Positions 4,593-17,627 of a DNA stretch of 22,458 nucleotides are shown here, in pieces. Under the pieces are notes generated by a model. That model was not told the origin of the DNA and ran no database searches. It saw only the letters and a list, made by a program, of their open reading frames with translations. Each line of letters starts with the position of its first letter. Position 1 is the first letter of the stretch. The translations under genes were made by a program, and so were the position numbers. The stretch is from a virus, in the IMG/VR virus record IMGVR_UViG_3300009285_008471, positions 1 to 22,458 of that record; one strand, 5' to 3'.

Positions 4593-4698
4593 GCCCAGAC
4601 CGCAGCCGGCGCCTTGTGCGGGTTCTCGCCCTCTCTCCCGCATTCTGATGGCGCACCGGGAGGCGTTAGCGGCTGGGCTCGTGTGTTCCCATGACTGA
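4561..4698 (+). CDS. 45-residue Pro/Arg-rich small protein
   Basis: A short frame starting MPIKPPRPHPEPRPQ and overlapping the genes on both sides (32 and 8 bases), in keeping with the coupled layout here. The N-terminal half is proline-rich and probably unstructured; the second half could form one helix. It may be real or a by-product of the overlapping frames. Confidence 0.4.
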   Translation: MPIKPPRPHPEPRPQPAPCAGSRPLSRILMAHREALAAGLVCSHD

Positions 4699-5392
4699 CC
4701 TTAACCCCAACATCGAGACGGCGCTGGAGGCCGCGATCCTCAACGGACGCCGTGCGCGAGAACCCCGCGAGCATTTCTGGGCCTCCAGCGTGGGCATGTG
4801 TCCCAGGAAACAGATCGCGGAACGTGCCGGCCTCGCTCCCACCAACCCCCCGGATTCCCGCTCCCACTTCAAGATGATGGCGGGGAGCGTCATCGGCAAG
4901 GAGATTCAGCGTCTCCTCGAATCCACCGGCTACCTCTCGCCGGACTGGCACGAGAAGCATGTCACCTACCGCAGCTACGTCGGACGGGTGGATGGCTACA
5001 CCGACCGCATCCCTGGGGGGGCGATTGTGGAGCTCAAAACCTCGGATGATCGGAGCATCCTCAAGTACCAAGACACGCCTGAACACTACCTGTGGCAGGG
5101 GTATCTCTACTGCCTCGCTACCGGGGTGGACACGCTGCTGCTGTTTCAGGTGGGCAAGAACCAGGGGATTTCGCGTCACAGGGTACTCAGGATCGATTCC
5201 CAGTGGCGCAAGTCCTTAGAGACGCATATCGACATGATGGAGCGTTTTTGGGCACGTTTTGTTGAACAGGGGGGCACGCTAGCCGCGCTCCCCGACCATT
5301 TGCACAACTTCGGCTGGGAGGCCAAATTGTGCAGCATGAATGAGTCGAAACCCACCCAGGAGGTGACCGATGCCCTTGACTCACCCGGATGA
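4691..5392 (+). CDS. RecB/Cas4-like PD-(D/E)XK nuclease
   Basis: A 233-residue protein with the core motifs of the PDDEXK exonuclease superfamily: motif I near GSVIGKEIQ (residues 65-73), D101 in GRVDGYTD, E114 and K116 in IVELKTS, and the RecB-type QxxxY motif in YLWQGYLYCLA (Q136, Y140). Only one N-terminal Cys is present (SSVGMCPRK), so a complete Cas4-type iron-sulfur cluster is unlikely. Phage members process DNA ends during replication or recombination. It is followed with overlap by a conserved-looking small protein and then the helicase, which supports a replication/recombination role. Confidence 0.8.
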   Translation: MTDLNPNIETALEAAILNGRRAREPREHFWASSVGMCPRKQIAERAGLAPTNPPDSRSHFKMMAGSVIGKEIQRLLESTGYLSPDWHEKHVTYRSYVGRVDGYTDRIPGGAIVELKTSDDRSILKYQDTPEHYLWQGYLYCLATGVDTLLLFQVGKNQGISRHRVLRIDSQWRKSLETHIDMMERFWARFVEQGGTLAALPDHLHNFGWEAKLCSMNESKPTQEVTDALDSPG

Positions 5393-5747
5393 GGCGTCAG
5401 CGTATTTCAATCGCACGAGTGGGCGGTTCTTCAATCTGTCCAAAGACCTCGAACCCGGCCAAAGCTGGCTGATTGACATGGTGGACGTGTCCGAAAACAC
5501 CAAAACCAAGTATCCGATCCCCGGCAAGACCTTTTGTTATCGGTTCATCTTTCTCGATCCGCAAGGCGAAACCCGCCTGATGGACATTGCCGGAGCCGAC
5601 GCGATTGCCCAAGTGTTCCGAGCCCTCTACCCTCATGGCATGGCGGCAGGGCTCCAACCCGGCCTTGCCACCCTCACCCGCCGAGCGGAGCGTTCCACCA
5701 AACAAGCCAACTTTTCCCTCACGCGAGAGAAGGCGGTCGATCCCTAA
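5370..5747 (+). CDS. Candidate ssDNA-binding-type protein of the replication block
   Basis: A 125-residue soluble protein overlapping the nuclease gene by 23 bases. It has alternating strands and a KTKYPIPGKTFCYRF segment followed by LMDIAGADAIAQVF; the C-terminus is basic. Predicted strand content and position between a RecB-like nuclease and a DnaB-like helicase suggest an OB-fold ssDNA-binding or annealing partner. No diagnostic motif is visible, so the role is inferred from context. Confidence 0.6.
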   Translation: MPLTHPDEASAYFNRTSGRFFNLSKDLEPGQSWLIDMVDVSENTKTKYPIPGKTFCYRFIFLDPQGETRLMDIAGADAIAQVFRALYPHGMAAGLQPGLATLTRRAERSTKQANFSLTREKAVDP

Positions 5748-5770
5748 CCCCTCTTCTTATGATAGTAGAC

Positions 5771-5784
5771 ACGTTATACGTTAT
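5771..5784 (+). repeat. Tandem 7-bp repeat ACGTTAT x2
   Basis: Two exact head-to-tail copies (5771-5777 and 5778-5784) immediately left of the nested inverted repeat. Short direct repeats next to AT-rich DNA are typical of replication-initiator or regulator sites. Confidence 0.5.
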
Positions 5785-5785
5785 A

Positions 5786-5886
5786 AGAGATAAAAGACAA
5801 AAGAAGTACGCTAACAGTTTTAAGGTTCAAAAACCGTTAGGTCTTTTGAACCTTGATAGAACTGTTAACTGTTATCTTTTATCTTT
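5786..5886. repeat. AT-rich nested inverted repeat, candidate replication origin or structured RNA
   Basis: In the gene-free gap 5748-5978 three inverted repeats nest around one centre: AGATAAAAGA (5788-5797) with TCTTTTATCT (5875-5884), AACAGTT (5813-5819) with AACTGTT (5860-5866), and AAGGTTCAAAA (5822-5832) with TTTTGAACCTT (5844-5854). The region is much more AT-rich than its surroundings. It sits beside the helicase gene, where phage origins are often found. There is no T tract to suggest a terminator. The rest of the gap holds nothing else I can support. Confidence 0.55.
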
Positions 5887-5978
5887 AAGTTCCTTTGTTG
5901 TTAGAAAAGTTTCGAGCCGTTGGTGGGGTCGGCGCTTGGGCTGGCGCCCGCGCCTCCCCCTCTTGGCGTCCTCCGTTT

Positions 5979-6194
5979 ATGCTGGAAAAGCATAGTCATA
6001 GCGACCCGTTGTGTGTTCCAAGTTGTCCGATGTGGAAAAGTGAGTCCCTGGAAGAATCCCGCCGGGTCTATCGCCTCCGAGCCGAACGTGAGAAGGAGTT
6101 TGCCAAAGCATGTCCGTCCTCCCCGCTGCTGATGCAACAGTTGCAAACGGTGCAGCGCCGCCACCCCAATCGATGGCCGAGACTCCCCCGGTAG
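5979..6194 (+). CDS. 71-residue hypothetical protein overlapping the helicase start
   Basis: The frame begins after the AT-rich region, has Cys residues (CVPSCPMW) and a charged helix (SLEESRRVYRLRAEREKEF), and overlaps the helicase gene by 85 bases. It lacks a clear ribosome site; an in-frame ATG at 6030 is an alternative. A short helical accessory protein is possible, but the overlap makes this uncertain. Confidence 0.45.
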   Translation: MLEKHSHSDPLCVPSCPMWKSESLEESRRVYRLRAEREKEFAKACPSSPLLMQQLQTVQRRHPNRWPRLPR

Positions 6195-7120
6195 CGCCCA
6201 ACTCGAACGTGAGCTATTTGCTGTCAGCCTACAGCACCCACAATGGCCTTCCGACGGTTCCGACGGGCATCCCCCGCCTCGATCAATGGCTTCAGGGAGG
6301 CATGATCCCAGGGACGCTCTCGATCATCGCCGGACGCGCCGGCGAGGGCAAAACGAGCATCGCCCTTACCATGTCCCGCCGGATGGCCGAGCAGGGGTTC
6401 CGCGTGGTGTTCTTCAGCCTGGAAATGAGCGCCCACGAGCTGACGGAGCGGTTGATCTGCCAATGGCTCTCCAAGACGAGTCTTGACCTGCGCCTCCACC
6501 GCGATAGCAAAACCCTCGAAGCCCTCGTGCGCCCGTTGGTGGCCCAAGCCAAGCGCCAACTCAATCTCCAAATCCTCGATGAGGGTGGCGGGGGGATTGC
6601 GGACATTCGCTTGTTGTTGGAGAGTTTCAAGCGCAAGGACGGCTTGGTGCCGGATGTGCTCGTGATTGACCATTTGCAGCAAGTGTGGATGCCCGAAGGC
6701 ACCTCGCGTGCGGATGGGATTGCGGCCTATCTGCGCGATCTGAAAGAGGTGGCGAAGGAGTATAAGTTGGTGGTGATCCTGTGTTCCCAACTCAACCGTC
6801 AAGTCTACCAGACGAAAGATAAGAGCGGCGCGATCCACCCCCAGCTTTACCATTTGAAGTCGAGCGGCGGGATTGAAGAAGTCTCGGATTTGGTCTTGAT
6901 CTGCTGGCGCAAATCGATGGATGAGCAGTTGGATGAGCAGACCCAATCCCACGACACCGAGTTTGCGGTGTTCATCGCCAAGAATCGCAGCGGCCCCATC
7001 GGAGAAATCACCCTCAAGTTCCGTCCCCAGCACTATGACTTCGTGGAATACGAATCGAGTTGGGATGCGCCGCCTCCGTCCGGCGGGCAAGATCGGGCGG
7101 CGGGGGAACTGGCCGTATGA
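6110..7120 (+). CDS. DnaB-type replicative helicase (RecA-fold domain only)
   Basis: A 336-residue protein preceded by AAGGAG. After a Pro/Ala-rich N-terminal tail (residues 1-35) comes the hexameric DnaB C-terminal domain: Walker A GRAGEGKTS (75-83), FFSLEMS (101-107), Walker B VLVIDHLQ (183-190), SQLNR (226-230) and a GGIEEVSDLVLICWR segment (253-267). It lacks the DnaB N-terminal primase-binding domain, so it is about 100 residues shorter than bacterial DnaB, as in several phage versions. It should unwind DNA 5'-3' at the fork. The next gene overlaps by ATGA. Confidence 0.9.
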   Translation: MSVLPAADATVANGAAPPPQSMAETPPVAPNSNVSYLLSAYSTHNGLPTVPTGIPRLDQWLQGGMIPGTLSIIAGRAGEGKTSIALTMSRRMAEQGFRVVFFSLEMSAHELTERLICQWLSKTSLDLRLHRDSKTLEALVRPLVAQAKRQLNLQILDEGGGGIADIRLLLESFKRKDGLVPDVLVIDHLQQVWMPEGTSRADGIAAYLRDLKEVAKEYKLVVILCSQLNRQVYQTKDKSGAIHPQLYHLKSSGGIEEVSDLVLICWRKSMDEQLDEQTQSHDTEFAVFIAKNRSGPIGEITLKFRPQHYDFVEYESSWDAPPPSGGQDRAAGELAV

Positions 7121-7236: not shown

Positions 7237-7310
7237 ATACTCGAACGAAAGGGCAGCGGTCGGTGTTGAAAGCGATCCGCTACGCCCTCAGCTTCCACAT
7301 AAGTAAATGA
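7233..7310 (+). CDS. Small ORF truncated by a homing-endonuclease insertion (5' part)
   Basis: The frame starts MNTRTKGQRSVLKAIRYAL and stops after 25 codons at a TGA that overlaps the endonuclease ATG. GC-rich phage-like codons end at the CCACAT motif (7295-7300), after which the sequence becomes AT-rich. If bases 7301-8189 are removed, this frame continues without a stop into the short frame at 8188-8256, giving a 44-residue protein. It is therefore either an independent tiny gene or the 5' half of an interrupted one. Confidence 0.5.
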   Translation: MNTRTKGQRSVLKAIRYALSFHISK

Positions 7311-8189
7311 GAACTACAGAGATATTGAAATCATGTCAAGAATGTACTCAAACATTTATCGCTAACGATCATTCTGTACGACATCAACGAAAGTTTTGCA
7401 GTAAAAAGTGTGCAGGGAAGTTTCATGGAAGGCAAAGAACGGAAAAGATTGCTTGTCTTCCGAGAGATAGCGTTACGTATGTTTATCGTAATCGGAATGG
7501 AAGACTATATCGAGAGCGCAAAAATCTTTCAAAGAATTGTCGCGCATGTTCTAAACAATTTTTTGTGTCTTCAAGGAGAAAGAAACAGCAATTTTGCAGT
7601 CCAGTCTGTCGTTTGCAAACAATGACACCAATCTGGGCACAATTGATGAAACGGACACAAAGAATAGGCAGTGAAGCAAAACGTATTGCTACAAAAAATG
7701 AGATTTTTCAAGCATGGCAACGGTGGCTTCGCTCAGAAGGGAGGATCCCACTGAGAAGGGCATTTATTATGTTGGGATATAATCGTATTCCAGATAATTT
7801 ATCGGAATTGGTAGGAAAAAAACTTTATCGAGATGCCATTAAACGATTTTCTCGAAGACCAACTCGATTATCTGTTGGAATCAATAATGAGCGAAAAACA
7901 AAAAATACATTTGAACTACATGGGTGGTATGTGATGCGTTCTGCTGGATCAAAAGGTTTGTGGGATTTATTTGTTTTGAATATGAATCCTCCGCATGATA
8001 TGAAATTGCTACAAATTAAATCAGGATCGGGAGTATCAGGGAAAAAACGCATTGTATTGGAACAGTTTCAGGTGCCGTCATTTTTGAAGAAGGAATTATG
8101 GGAATATGAAAAAGGTGAATATATTCCAAAGATTCTTCAATGGGATGGTCTGGAATGGATTAAACAAGACCCTCCATGGGAAACCACAT
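7301..8189 (+). mobile_element. Inserted homing-endonuclease element
   Basis: An AT-rich block of 889 bp in GC-rich surroundings, flanked by the 6-bp direct repeat CCACAT (7295-7300 and 8184-8189). It consists almost entirely of one endonuclease gene. Excision between the repeats joins the flanking short frames in phase. Boundaries are inferred from composition and the repeat. Confidence 0.55.
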
Positions 8190-8191
8190 GA
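7307..8191 (+). CDS. Zinc-finger PD-(D/E)XK homing endonuclease
   Basis: A 294-residue basic protein with markedly AT-rich codons. Two N-terminal zinc knuckles are visible: C10-x2-C13 with C31-x3-C35, and C78-x2-C81 with C97-x3-C101. A central basic linker follows. The C-terminal domain has the resolvase-like PD-(D/E)XK signature VMRSAGSKGLWDLFVLN (D220) and LLQIKSGSG (Q236, K238), with a preceding acidic helix around NTFELHGW. This resembles the I-Ssp6803I/Hjc-like branch of homing nucleases and the zinc-finger free-standing endonucleases of phages. The flanking repeats and composition support mobility. Confidence 0.75.
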   Translation: MRTTEILKSCQECTQTFIANDHSVRHQRKFCSKKCAGKFHGRQRTEKIACLPRDSVTYVYRNRNGRLYRERKNLSKNCRACSKQFFVSSRRKKQQFCSPVCRLQTMTPIWAQLMKRTQRIGSEAKRIATKNEIFQAWQRWLRSEGRIPLRRAFIMLGYNRIPDNLSELVGKKLYRDAIKRFSRRPTRLSVGINNERKTKNTFELHGWYVMRSAGSKGLWDLFVLNMNPPHDMKLLQIKSGSGVSGKKRIVLEQFQVPSFLKKELWEYEKGEYIPKILQWDGLEWIKQDPPWETT

Positions 8192-8828: not shown

Positions 8829-9143
8829 ATGGAGAGTGATATGGGAGGGGGAAACTGCCAGCCGCGATACGTCATTGTGCGGACGTACTCCGCCGGCGTG
8901 TTTGCGGGGTTGTTGATCGCTCGGACGGGACAAGAAGTCGTGTTGGCGAAGGCGAGGCGTCTTTGGTTTTGGAGTGGGGCGGCATCCCTGTCACAGTTGG
9001 CCATGGAGGGAACGATACAACCCGACAAGTGCAAATTCCCGTGTGAAGTTGATCGCGTGGAACTCCTGCAAGCCATTGAGATTTTGGACGTGACACCGGC
9101 AGCGAAGGCTTCCATCCAAGCCGTTCCTGTGTGGTCAGCATGA
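8829..9143 (+). CDS. DUF6948-type conserved phage protein
   Basis: A 104-residue protein with a strong ribosome site (GGAGGG). The sequence YVIVRTYSAGVFAG, then ARRLWFWSGAASLSQLAMEG, a KCKFPCEVD segment and ELLQAIEILDVT match what I recall of the DUF6948 family, widespread in tailed phages. Its biochemical role is unknown. The Trp-rich LWFWSGAASL core and the KCKFPCEV segment are the most diagnostic parts. Its stop overlaps the start of the Gly-repeat gene. Confidence 0.75.
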   Translation: MESDMGGGNCQPRYVIVRTYSAGVFAGLLIARTGQEVVLAKARRLWFWSGAASLSQLAMEGTIQPDKCKFPCEVDRVELLQAIEILDVTPAAKASIQAVPVWSA

Positions 9144-9283
9144 CTCACTCCTACTCCGGCTCCGGCGACGGCTTCGGCTCCGGCTTCGGCTCCGGCTCCG
9201 GCGACGGCTTCGGCTCCGGCTTCGGCTCCGGCGACGGCTTCGGCTCCGGCTTCGGCGATGGCTTCGGCGACGGCTCCGGCTAA
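9140..9283 (+). CDS. 47-residue Gly/Ser/Asp/Phe low-complexity protein
   Basis: It starts inside the preceding stop (ATGA) and after MTHSY consists only of the dipeptides SG, DG and FG, for example GDGFGSGFGSG. The DNA is a 6-bp repeat array. Tiny Gly-alternating proteins of this look (GDGYGSG types) occur in other tailed phages as I recall, so it is probably translated. The role is unknown; a disordered or phase-separating peptide is possible. Confidence 0.6.
   Translation: MTHSYSGSGDGFGSGFGSGSGDGFGSGFGSGDGFGSGFGDGFGDGSG
9155..9280 (+). repeat. 21-copy hexamer array (TCCGGC/TTCGGC/GACGGC)
   Basis: Positions 9155-9280 are 21 consecutive hexamers of the form NNCGGC or GATGGC, each coding for one dipeptide ending in Gly. 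The array is in frame throughout, so length change by slippage would keep the reading frame. Confidence 0.9.
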
Positions 9284-12372: not shown

Positions 12373-12617
12373 TGCGCTATCTCTGGCTGTGCCTGCTCCT
12401 GTCCGGCTGCGCCACGCCTCCGCCGCAACCGGCTTCGGATATGTCCCCATATACGTCCCCACAAATGTCCGCTCCCATGTCTCTCGCCGCCCTCCGTGAC
12501 GCCGCCCAGGATGCGGACGCGTTTGCCCCCTGGCTGGGATGGCTCGTCGTCGGGGCGGCAGGAATATGGCTTGCCGCTCTGATGTGGCAGGAGTGGCGAT
12601 GGAAGCGGGTGCGATGA
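12369..12617 (+). CDS. Lipoprotein with C-terminal membrane span, u-spanin-like
   Basis: An 82-residue product with a lipobox LLLSGC (Cys14), so it should be lipidated and cleaved. A Pro/Ser-rich linker follows (ATPPPQPASD onward, about residues 15-53), then a membrane span (WLGWLVVGAAGIWLAALMW, residues 55-73) and a basic end (RWKRVR). An outer-membrane lipid anchor plus an inner-membrane C-terminal span is unimolecular-spanin topology. The linker is short for that role and the gene is far from the other lysis candidates. ATGA overlap on both sides. Confidence 0.6.
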   Translation: MMRYLWLCLLLSGCATPPPQPASDMSPYTSPQMSAPMSLAALRDAAQDADAFAPWLGWLVVGAAGIWLAALMWQEWRWKRVR

Positions 12618-14581
12618 GTTGGGATGTGCGGGAAGGGCATGTGCTTGATTGTCTACGAGTGATGCCCGCCGAGTCGGTGCAGTGTGTGATAACTTCTCCA
12701 CCTTATTGGGGTTTGCGGAGTTACAAGACCGAGCCGCAGGTGTGGGGTGGGGAGCCGCATGAGCATGAGTGGAACGACCAGTCAAGAACCGTCGGAACAG
12801 GTGGACAGACGGAGAAGCAGACAACGAACCGAGGACAGACTGGACAAGGATATGTGGCCGGTGGCTCTCAATGTCCCTGCGGCGCCTGGCGTGGCGAGTT
12901 GGGGTTGGAGCCGACGCCGGAGCTTTTTTGCCAGCACATTGTTGAGGTGTTTAGGGAGGTCAGGCGAGTGTTGCATCCTTCGGGCACGCTTTGGTGCAAC
13001 CTCGGGGACTCTTACGCTGGCTCGGCACAGGAATGGGGTCACGGCAAACAATATGCCGGCCAAAAACAATCCACAAACAGAGGCAGTCTTAATCAACCAC
13101 TGACTGAATCAAAAATTGGATTTGATCGTCCACCCGGCTACATCTCCTCACGGCAGCCCAACGGCCTGAAACCCAAAGACCTCGTCGGCATCCCGTGGCG
13201 CGTCGCCTTCGCGCTGCAACAACCTTATGAGACCCACTGCATAAAATTGGAACGTGATAGAGCATGGTTGGCAGCTTTTATTGATGGAGAAGGTTGCATC
13301 AGCATCAGACGCCACGATTCAAATAGTAACGCAGAGGGAAACCCACGGTGTCAGGATGGTTTTATTCCTTTTGTCTGTGCGACAAATAATGATATAGCCT
13401 TACTCGAATACGCCAAATTGATTACAGGAAAAGGGTCGGTGTTATTGAAACAGCGAGCTGGAAGCACAGACAAACGACAAATTGTAAGTCGGCATGATTC
13501 ATATGGCTGGCGTGTAGAAAGTCGCGCATCTATCGAAATTGTTTGTGATATTTACCCTTTTCTCATCGCAAAGCGAAAGCAAGCCGTTCTTGCATATACA
13601 CTTCAACAGTCAAATCTTAACGGGAAATCTCTGAGAGGAAATGGGCCGCTTCCTCATGCAGAGCAGGAAAAACGAGAGTTGCTAAAACAACTTATTAACG
13701 ATTGCAACCAACGGAAACCAGTTGATATACCGTCTTGGTGTCTAGAACCAAAGACGCAAGTTGAACCTGGCTGGTGGCTGCGCTCGGCCATCACCCTGTG
13801 CAAATTGAATCCCATGCCAGAGAGCTGTCGAGATCGACCGACTTCAGCCACCGAAATGATGTTTTTACTAACAAAATCTGCGACATATTTTTATGACATT
13901 GAGGCCACACGAGAAATCCGACGAACGCATGAGCAGCGTATGGATGGCATTGTGCGAGATCGAGTCTATGATTATGACAGTAAGCAAAAGCAGATGGGTC
14001 GAACCGCATCAGGGTCCAATGAGCGATGGGATGCCAATCCGACGACGGGTCGCAATCTCCGCAACTGGTGGCCGGTCGTCTCTGAGCCTTTTCCTCTCGC
14101 CCATTTCGCTACCTTTGGTCAGAAGTGGATTGAACCCTGTATCCGCGCAGGCACGAGTGAGCGAGGCTGTTGTGCGGCATGTGGTGCGCTGTGGGAGCGA
14201 ACCGTCTCCATTCCGTATGACAAAGACCATCCGACCTACAATGAGTGGCGGAAGCAGCATCAAGGAGGAGCGAAGTTTCCGACAGGTCAGCGAGTACCTG
14301 GCGATAGTCGTGGGTATGGTTCAAGCGTGTCTCAGTATTATGCCAAAGTCTGGGGAGGGAGCACCAGTCCTGCTGTTACAACTGGCTGGCACCCCACCTG
14401 TTCACATCCTGGCGATCCGATTCCGTGCACCGTCTTGGATATTTTCTGTGGCAGCGGGACGAGCGGAGTGGTGGCCTTAAAACTTGGCCGGAGCTTTGTG
14501 GGGCTTGAGCTTCAGCCTGATTATGTAGCGATGGCCCGGAAACGGATCGGAGCCGTCATGCCCCTGTTTCAGCCCGCATGA
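12614..14581 (+). CDS. DNA methyltransferase (beta-type, N4-C/N6-A) interrupted in frame by a LAGLIDADG domain
   Basis: The ATG at 12614 overlaps the previous stop and gives 655 residues. The catalytic TSPPYWGLR (27-35) comes first and the SAM-binding LDIFCGSGTSG (608-618) last, the motif order of beta-class amino-methyltransferases. Between them, KDLVGIPWRVAFALQQP and PGWWLRSAITL are typical methylase blocks, but residues 205-385 are foreign: they contain the LAGLIDADG-type motif LAAFIDGEG (219-227) and AT-rich codons. Removing the 543-bp insert rejoins ALQQ to PGWWLRS in frame. Whether the fused protein still methylates DNA is unknown. A Cys cluster (GCCAACG) near the C-terminus is normal for phage methylases of this kind. 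Confidence 0.85.
   Translation: MSWDVREGHVLDCLRVMPAESVQCVITSPPYWGLRSYKTEPQVWGGEPHEHEWNDQSRTVGTGGQTEKQTTNRGQTGQGYVAGGSQCPCGAWRGELGLEPTPELFCQHIVEVFREVRRVLHPSGTLWCNLGDSYAGSAQEWGHGKQYAGQKQSTNRGSLNQPLTESKIGFDRPPGYISSRQPNGLKPKDLVGIPWRVAFALQQPYETHCIKLERDRAWLAAFIDGEGCISIRRHDSNSNAEGNPRCQDGFIPFVCATNNDIALLEYAKLITGKGSVLLKQRAGSTDKRQIVSRHDSYGWRVESRASIEIVCDIYPFLIAKRKQAVLAYTLQQSNLNGKSLRGNGPLPHAEQEKRELLKQLINDCNQRKPVDIPSWCLEPKTQVEPGWWLRSAITLCKLNPMPESCRDRPTSATEMMFLLTKSATYFYDIEATREIRRTHEQRMDGIVRDRVYDYDSKQKQMGRTASGSNERWDANPTTGRNLRNWWPVVSEPFPLAHFATFGQKWIEPCIRAGTSERGCCAACGALWERTVSIPYDKDHPTYNEWRKQHQGGAKFPTGQRVPGDSRGYGSSVSQYYAKVWGGSTSPAVTTGWHPTCSHPGDPIPCTVLDIFCGSGTSGVVALKLGRSFVGLELQPDYVAMARKRIGAVMPLFQPA
13226..13768 (+). 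mobile_element. In-frame LAGLIDADG homing-endonuclease insertion
   Basis: Exactly 543 bp (181 codons), flanked by AACCT at 13221-13225 and 13764-13768, and AT-rich against GC-rich flanks. The LAGLIDADG-like LAAFIDGEGCISIRR begins about 15 residues in; later FLIAKRKQAVLAYTL fits the second half of a single-motif endonuclease. No intein splicing blocks are visible, and the coding domain leaves little room for a group I intron core. Confidence 0.75.
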
Positions 14582-14718
14582 ACCCATTCCTTTTCGCCCT
14601 CCTCTGCCTGAACGTCGCCGCGGCGGGGTGGTTCGCCGTGCGGCACGAGTGGCCGTGGGTCGTGATTTACATTGGGGCGGGGCTGATTCAGGCCGGGTGT
14701 CTGTGGGAGAGTCGATGA
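14578..14718 (+). CDS. 46-residue two-segment membrane peptide
   Basis: The ATG overlaps the methyltransferase stop. Two hydrophobic stretches (NPFLFALLCLNVAAAGWFAV and VVIYIGAGLIQAGCLW) are separated by a short polar loop. Its TGA overlaps the ATG of the HNH gene (ATGA at 14715-14718). Function unknown. Confidence 0.6.
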   Translation: MNPFLFALLCLNVAAAGWFAVRHEWPWVVIYIGAGLIQAGCLWESR

Positions 14719-15167
14719 AGGAAATTAATTTGACTCAAAATAAAGTGGCATTAGTTGATGATGAAGATTTTGCATACTTATCACAGTTTACTTGGAGATA
14801 TTCTTGTGGGTACGCAAGACGCAGATTGCCATTACTAAAAGGAACGCGATTCAAAGATTTGTTTCTACACCGTGAAATACTTCGGATTCCATTTGGAAAA
14901 GAAGTAGATCATATTAATCATAATTCTCTTGATAACAGAAAACACAACTTGCGTTTCGTGACTCGTTCTCAAAATATCCAGAATTCCAAACTACGAAAGG
15001 ATAATACATCTGGTGTAAAAGGGGTTCACTGGTTTGCTCCTGCCAATTTGTGGACAGCATCTTTAATGACAAATGGAGTTACGAAAATGACTTATCATTC
15101 TTCAAAAGAAGAAGCCATCAATGCTGCTTGCCAAATGAGACGAAGCATAGGCGTTCCTAACGTCTGA
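14715..15167 (+). CDS. HNH homing endonuclease with AP2-like C-terminus
   Basis: A 150-residue AT-rich gene in a GC-rich region. VDHINHN followed by LDNRKHNLR and TRSQNIQN (residues 64-90) is the HNH_3-type catalytic pattern. The C-terminal SGVKGVHWFAPANLWTASL and the following strands resemble an AP2-type DNA-binding domain, usual in phage HNH endonucleases. It is free-standing between two small membrane genes. It should nick or cut homologous phage DNA lacking it. Confidence 0.85.
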   Translation: MKEINLTQNKVALVDDEDFAYLSQFTWRYSCGYARRRLPLLKGTRFKDLFLHREILRIPFGKEVDHINHNSLDNRKHNLRFVTRSQNIQNSKLRKDNTSGVKGVHWFAPANLWTASLMTNGVTKMTYHSSKEEAINAACQMRRSIGVPNV

Positions 15168-17492: not shown

Positions 17493-17627
17493 TCACAGCT
17501 TCCTGATCCATAGTCGAATCGCTTCCAGCACGGCTTCCATCAGCGTTTTCCGTTCAAGCGCCGCTTTCGACTTCAGCTGGGCGTGATCCTCAACCGGAAT
17601 CCTCACGTTGAGCTTGACCTGTTCCAT
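17493..17627 (-). CDS. Ribbon-helix-helix (CopG/Arc-type) regulator
   Basis: A 44-residue protein with the ribbon-helix-helix plan: a beta strand (VKLNVRIPV), helix A (EDHAQLKSKAALERK) and helix B (TLMEAVLEAIRLWIRKL). It is first in the leftward operon and next to a divergent promoter region, so it probably represses one or both promoters. The -10 box ends six bases before the ATG and there is no good Shine-Dalgarno, suggesting a near-leaderless message. Confidence 0.75.
   Translation of the reverse strand: MEQVKLNVRIPVEDHAQLKSKAALERKTLMEAVLEAIRLWIRKL

What the first reader, a model, noticed from the sequence alone, without database searches (positions are those of the whole stretch)
5771..5886. 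AT-rich nested three-tier inverted repeat beside the helicase gene: candidate phage origin
Perfect arms of 10, 7 and 11 bp nest around one centre at about 5838, next to a tandem ACGTTAT repeat. They lie in the largest clearly gene-free gap of the replication block, between the SSB-like candidate and DnaB. The symmetry and composition match initiator-binding and unwinding regions, although a structured RNA is an alternative.
Basis: partly seen in the sequence, partly recalled or inferred. Interest (0 to 1): 0.6.

Follow-up and report, generated by a model that had tools for sequence, protein, structure and literature searches.

The report
Orphan AT-rich phage hairpin beside helicase
A short AT-rich stretch of a GC-rich phage genome, just upstream of its helicase gene, can fold into one long hairpin built partly from 7-letter tandem repeats; it is clearly not chance and might mark where DNA copying starts, but no relative carrying it could be found, so its job is unproven.

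Summary
The structure is real. Perfect arms of 10, 8 and 11 bp nest around about 5838 in the lowest-GC 150 bp of the record (30% GC). Only two distinct places in about 2.3 Mb of other phage DNA equal it. Two corrections: the "three tiers" are one near-continuous 36-39 bp hairpin closed by a GTTA tetraloop, and the "tandem ACGTTAT" is one of four period-7 arrays inside 116 bp (2000 shuffles never gave more than two at one spacing).

The origin reading is plausible but unproven. In favour: AT-rich, intergenic, 220 bp from a DnaB-type helicase. Against: no iteron family, no initiator gene found in the record, no clear GC-skew switch. In nine other helicase-bearing phage loci the same scans found repeat arrays inside initiator-type genes (the lambda arrangement), which this element does not share. 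No homologue of the element or of its exonuclease-small protein-helicase block was found in the collections searched, so conservation and compensatory change could not be tested. RNA-level function, a heptad-binding protein site and an inert remnant remain open. Best reading: a DNA-level replication-initiation or unwinding site, about 0.38.

The parts
5748..5978 (.). gene-free gap that holds the element, between the 125-aa ORF and the possible small ORF at 5979
   Evidence: ORF list; the 150 bp from 5754 are 30% GC in a record of about 57%
5771..5784 (.). tandem heptamer ACGTTAT x2
5783..5804 (.). period-7 array, about 3 copies (ATAAAAG unit), forms most of the left outer arm
5788..5797 (.). 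outer arm, left (AGATAAAAGA)
5812..5819 (.). middle arm, left (TAACAGTT)
5822..5832 (.). inner arm, left (AAGGTTCAAAA)
5833..5843 (.). loop region ACCGTTAGGTC: ACC/GGT pairs closing a GTTA tetraloop, one bulged C
5844..5854 (.). inner arm, right (TTTTGAACCTT)
5860..5867 (.). middle arm, right (AACTGTTA)
5860..5873 (.). tandem heptamer AACTGTT x2; the palindromic motif AACNGTT occurs 4 times in the element (5813, 5832, 5860, 5867) of 9 in the record
5872..5886 (.). period-7 array TTATCTT x2, forms the right outer arm
5875..5884 (.). outer arm, right (TCTTTTATCT)
6110..7120 (+). DnaB_C helicase-type ATPase downstream; lacks about 130 N-terminal residues present in the uncut relatives compared

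Best explanation
A cis-acting DNA element of the phage's early/replication operon that melts or extrudes as a hairpin and serves as a start site for replication (an origin or a single-strand helicase/primase loading site). SHOWN: the 36-39 bp imperfect hairpin, the heptamer arrays in its arms, its extreme AT-richness, its intergenic position and the DnaB-type ATPase gene downstream. INFERRED: that selection acts on the DNA rather than on an RNA; that a protein recognises the arms (AACNGTT or heptamer motifs); that the AT-rich arms open; and that the neighbouring helicase loads there.
For: Not chance. 30% GC in a record of about 57%: a stem selected purely for RNA stability in a GC-rich genome would be expected to be GC-rich, whereas easy melting demands AT (inference). 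Total fold energy is nearly equal on the two strands when identical bounds are folded (-37.1 and -38.9 kcal/mol), so there is no real strand preference. Four AACNGTT palindromes in 61 bp. Intergenic, 220 bp from a DnaB_C gene. The same repeat/palindrome scans picked out probable origins in other helicase loci, for example L064 with five copies of an ATTATCAATATTGATAA-like repeat in an O-like gene, so this kind of signal next to dnaB is often an origin.
Against: No repeated iteron of one consensus; no initiator gene detected in the record (PHROGs and Pfam scans); no clear GC-skew switch; not inside an initiator gene, unlike nine comparators; no E. coli-type DnaA box on inspection; conservation untestable. 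A hairpin that pairs down to a tetraloop suits a single-strand or RNA hairpin at least as well as protein half-sites.
Confidence: 0.38

Rival explanations
1. RNA-level element: the hairpin forms in the polycistronic message between the 125-aa ORF and the helicase (an RNase III-type processing site, stability element or attenuator controlling helicase expression), or in an antisense transcript.
For: Very stable fold on both strands, near-continuous stem with a tetraloop, starts about 40 nt after a stop codon inside a co-directional gene run; minus-strand z = -7.2, and -9.3 in the window scan.
Against: No Rfam family; stem AT-rich; no good intrinsic terminator on the plus strand and no sigma-70-like promoter nearby; no strand preference with equal bounds; covariation untestable.
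Confidence: 0.27
2. Duplex-DNA binding site for a protein that reads 7-bp units (an operator or centromere-like site); the phage encodes a small ribbon-helix-helix-like protein (17493-17627, minus strand).
For: Heptamer phasing in both arms; weak HicB/Arc-like matches for the 44-aa protein; the 9-mer AAGAGATAA is shared with the region upstream of that gene (17661). The omega protein (ParB) of pSM19035 binds contiguous 7-bp repeats, direct or inverted (PMC9499535).
Against: The heptamers here share no single consensus; the shared 9-mer is reached in 53 of 1000 shuffles; no ParA was seen among the ORFs scanned; the regulator match is weak.
Confidence: 0.14
3. Inert or selfish remnant: an old inverted duplication or a small mobile palindrome of AT-rich origin, without present function.
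For: The record carries other AT-rich apparently foreign inserts (HNH-type genes, GC3 about 0.3); no homologue anywhere; arms diverged to about 70%.
Against: No target-site duplication seen by eye; no second copy in the record; the stem is still well paired, and phage intergenic space is usually under pressure.
Confidence: 0.15
4. Recombination or telomere-resolution site (protelomerase tel-like, or a tyrosine-recombinase core).
For: Nested inverted repeats around one centre recall the N15 tel site (own knowledge).
Against: No protelomerase or integrase domain in the record (the family controls rang); the centre is not a perfect palindrome and the 11-bp spacer is too long for a tyrosine-recombinase core (own knowledge).
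Confidence: 0.03

Closest known systems
Lambda-type phage origin (O-protein iterons plus AT-rich tract; PMC7466680)
   Same: AT-rich DNA with repeats and dyad symmetry close to replication genes
   Different: Here the element is intergenic, has no set of same-consensus iterons, and no O-like gene was found; lambda's origin lies in the middle of gene O
RepA_N-type origin of the PLE satellite (PMC7145576)
   Same: Non-coding region with inverted sub-repeats
   Different: PLE has a direct-repeat iteron set bound by a RepA_N initiator; neither is seen here
Heptad-repeat parS of pSM19035 bound by the ribbon-helix-helix protein omega/ParB (PMC9499535)
   Same: Contiguous 7-bp units in direct and inverted arrangement; a small possible ribbon-helix-helix gene exists in the record
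   Different: No common heptad consensus, no ParA seen, and an added long hairpin
Intergenic RNase III processing hairpins of T7-like phages (own knowledge)
   Same: Long imperfect intergenic hairpin in an early operon
   Different: AT-rich, heptamer-built, no transcription or processing data

Membership tests
Lambda-type phage origin | Three or more iterons of one consensus | tested here: not met
   Only heptamer pairs of differing sequence and four 7-bp AACNGTT motifs at irregular spacing; comparators L064, L040, L042 and L031 show proper arrays
Lambda-type phage origin | Lies inside or next to an initiator (O-like) gene | tested here: not met
   Intergenic; Phage_rep_O absent from the record and no initiator among the ORFs scanned; nine comparators lie inside initiator, O-like, DnaD-like or primosomal genes. 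The record is a fragment, so an initiator elsewhere is possible
Lambda-type phage origin | AT-rich unwinding tract | tested here: met
   30% GC over 150 bp, lowest in the record (tied)
Replication origin (any kind) | Strand-composition switch or replication peak at the site | tested here: inconclusive
   Only a shallow skew dip near 6.5 kb in a fragment; no read data
Known structured RNA (Rfam) | Match above gathering score | tested here: not met
   None; best sub-threshold match 15.8 bits against 55 needed
Conserved cis element | Arms kept with compensatory changes in relatives | not testable with these tools
   No homologue of the element found in about 2.1 Mb of fetched related loci or in the collections searched
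Intrinsic terminator | G+C-rich stem followed at once by a U tract | tested here: not met
   No plus-strand site; one weak minus-strand site with 3 G-C pairs
Omega-type heptad centromere | Contiguous heptads of one consensus | tested here: not met
   Contiguous heptads, but ACGTTAT, AAAAGAN, AACTGTT and ATCTTTT differ
Protelomerase tel site | Protelomerase gene in the genome and a perfect central palindrome | tested here: not met
   PF16684 absent; centre ACCGTTAGGTC is not palindromic. The record is incomplete

The most novel reading that the evidence does not exclude
An initiator-less phage origin: a heptamer-built AT-rich hairpin on which an N-terminally truncated DnaB-type helicase loads directly, without iterons or an O/RepA-type protein.
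Probability: 0.08. Interest if true: 0.75.

Novelty: new variant of a known kind. Interest (0 to 1): 0.33.

Why it matters
If it is an origin, it would be one without the usual iterons or in-gene location, next to a helicase that lacks the usual N-terminal domain, and would suggest another way for phages to load their helicase. If not, it is still a clean, testable cis element: deletion of 116 bp, or a single binding or RNA-mapping experiment, would tell.

Tried and rejected
Close relatives of the helicase, the 125-aa protein and the exonuclease: none in viral contigs, and none of the helicase in genome contigs; phage records give no exonuclease or 125-aa match and only distant DnaB. The terminase clade gave 51 loci up to 57% identical and the methyltransferase clade 80 loci; none holds the helicase, the hairpin or an equal structure, so the replication block seems to be swapped relative to the packaging genes, or lies outside those fragments. 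Terminase in genome contigs: nothing. Exact inner-arm pattern in viral contigs: nothing. Intrinsic terminator, sigma-70 promoter, known RNA family, tRNA, integrase and protelomerase: rejected. The strong minus-strand z-score suggested an antisense RNA, but with identical bounds the two strands fold almost equally well. The shared 9-mer upstream of the small regulator gene is within chance. A structure of the 125-aa neighbour was low-confidence and matched nothing, so 'SSB-like' stays unproven.

Full report
WHAT IS THERE. The window is a 22,458-base linear virus record. Genes run mostly rightward: structural ORFs, a Cas4/RecE-type exonuclease (4691-5392), a 125-aa ORF (5370-5747), the element, a possible small ORF (5979-6194), a DnaB_C ATPase (6110-7120), an HNH-type gene, a methyltransferase with an HNH insertion, a small minus-strand cluster, then the terminase subunits and a portal-like ORF. 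The element lies in the 30%-GC stretch starting at 5754, in a record of about 57% GC.

Perfect nested arms of 10, 8 and 11 bp (5788-5797/5875-5884, 5812-5819/5860-5867, 5822-5832/5844-5854) total 29 bp; 500 dinucleotide shuffles reached at most 18. Of all 110-nt windows of the record, this one has the most extreme folding z-score on both strands. Two corrections matter. First, the loop also pairs (ACC-GTTA-GGT), so the whole is one imperfect hairpin of 36-39 pairs; with identical bounds the two strands fold to -38.9 and -37.1 kcal/mol, so the large difference in z-scores is not evidence for a strand. Second, the tandem ACGTTAT is only one of four period-7 arrays inside 5771-5886; four runs at lag 7 against 0.06 expected, and never more than two at any single lag in 2000 shuffles.

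HOW UNUSUAL. The same nested-arm scan over about 2.3 Mb of other phage DNA reached 29 bp at only two distinct places: L064 (repeated identically in L065 and L067) and L026. L064 is the palindromic repeat array of an O-like initiator gene, in effect a positive control for origins.

COMPARISON WITH HELICASE-LINKED ORIGINS. Eighty viral loci with DnaB relatives were collected. Scans for repeats and palindromes picked out arrays or nested palindromes in L064, L042, L040, L031, L083, L092, L036, L047 and L044, all inside genes that PHROGs calls replication initiation, O-like, DnaD-like or primosomal. The window element differs: it is intergenic, has heptamer pairs of different sequence rather than one iteron, and no initiator was found in the record. 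The adjacent helicase also differs: it lacks about 130 N-terminal residues that the uncut relatives compared carry.

CONSERVATION COULD NOT BE TESTED. No close relative of the helicase block was found. Relatives by terminase (up to 57%) and by methyltransferase lack the helicase block in the held DNA. A covariance model of the element, built from its two strands, finds only the window itself; elsewhere just two chance-level hits.

WHAT IT MOST LIKELY DOES. The combination of extreme AT-richness, dyad symmetry, repeats and a helicase gene next door best fits a DNA-level initiation or unwinding site; I give this 0.38. The strongest rival is an RNA hairpin acting on the operon message (0.27), then an inert remnant (0.15) and a heptad-reading protein site (0.14). 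The origin reading has specific negatives: no iterons, no initiator, no convincing skew switch. It cannot be filed as a lambda-type origin because two defining features were tested and not met; whether it nevertheless works as an origin is open.

VERDICT. A real, statistically strong, orphan cis element; function undecided; moderate-to-low interest until a relative or a replication profile is available.

Noticed in passing
   Followed up: yes
6110-7120: The DnaB-type helicase lacks the roughly 130-aa N-terminal domain seen in the uncut relatives compared.
   Followed up: partly
12539-14581: DNA methyltransferase ORF with an HNH-endonuclease-like insertion (residues about 239-392); L108 and L109 carry a version in which the flanking parts lie together, without the insertion.
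   Followed up: partly
7307-8191 and 14628-15167: HNH-type genes with GC3 about 0.3 in a record whose other genes mostly have GC3 of 0.6-0.8: probable recent mobile inserts.
   Followed up: no
9131-9283: Gly/Ser/Asp/Phe-rich ORF built of 12/30-bp repeats (GSGSGDGFGSGFG).
   Followed up: no
17493-17627 (minus strand): 44-aa possible ribbon-helix-helix protein (weak HicB/Arc-like matches), first gene of a small leftward cluster; the cumulative GC skew peaks at about 16.5 kb near this cluster.
   Followed up: partly
L064:4165-4400: Five copies of a palindromic ATTATCAATATTGATAA-like repeat inside an O-like gene just downstream of dnaB: a probable lambda-type origin in an AT-rich phage; the contig of L065 and L067 holds this region twice.
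   Followed up: partly
L055:1-68: Four CGCTCTCTCCGAGCG palindromic repeats just upstream of dnaB at a contig edge, not inside a long ORF: a possible intergenic iteron array.
   Followed up: no
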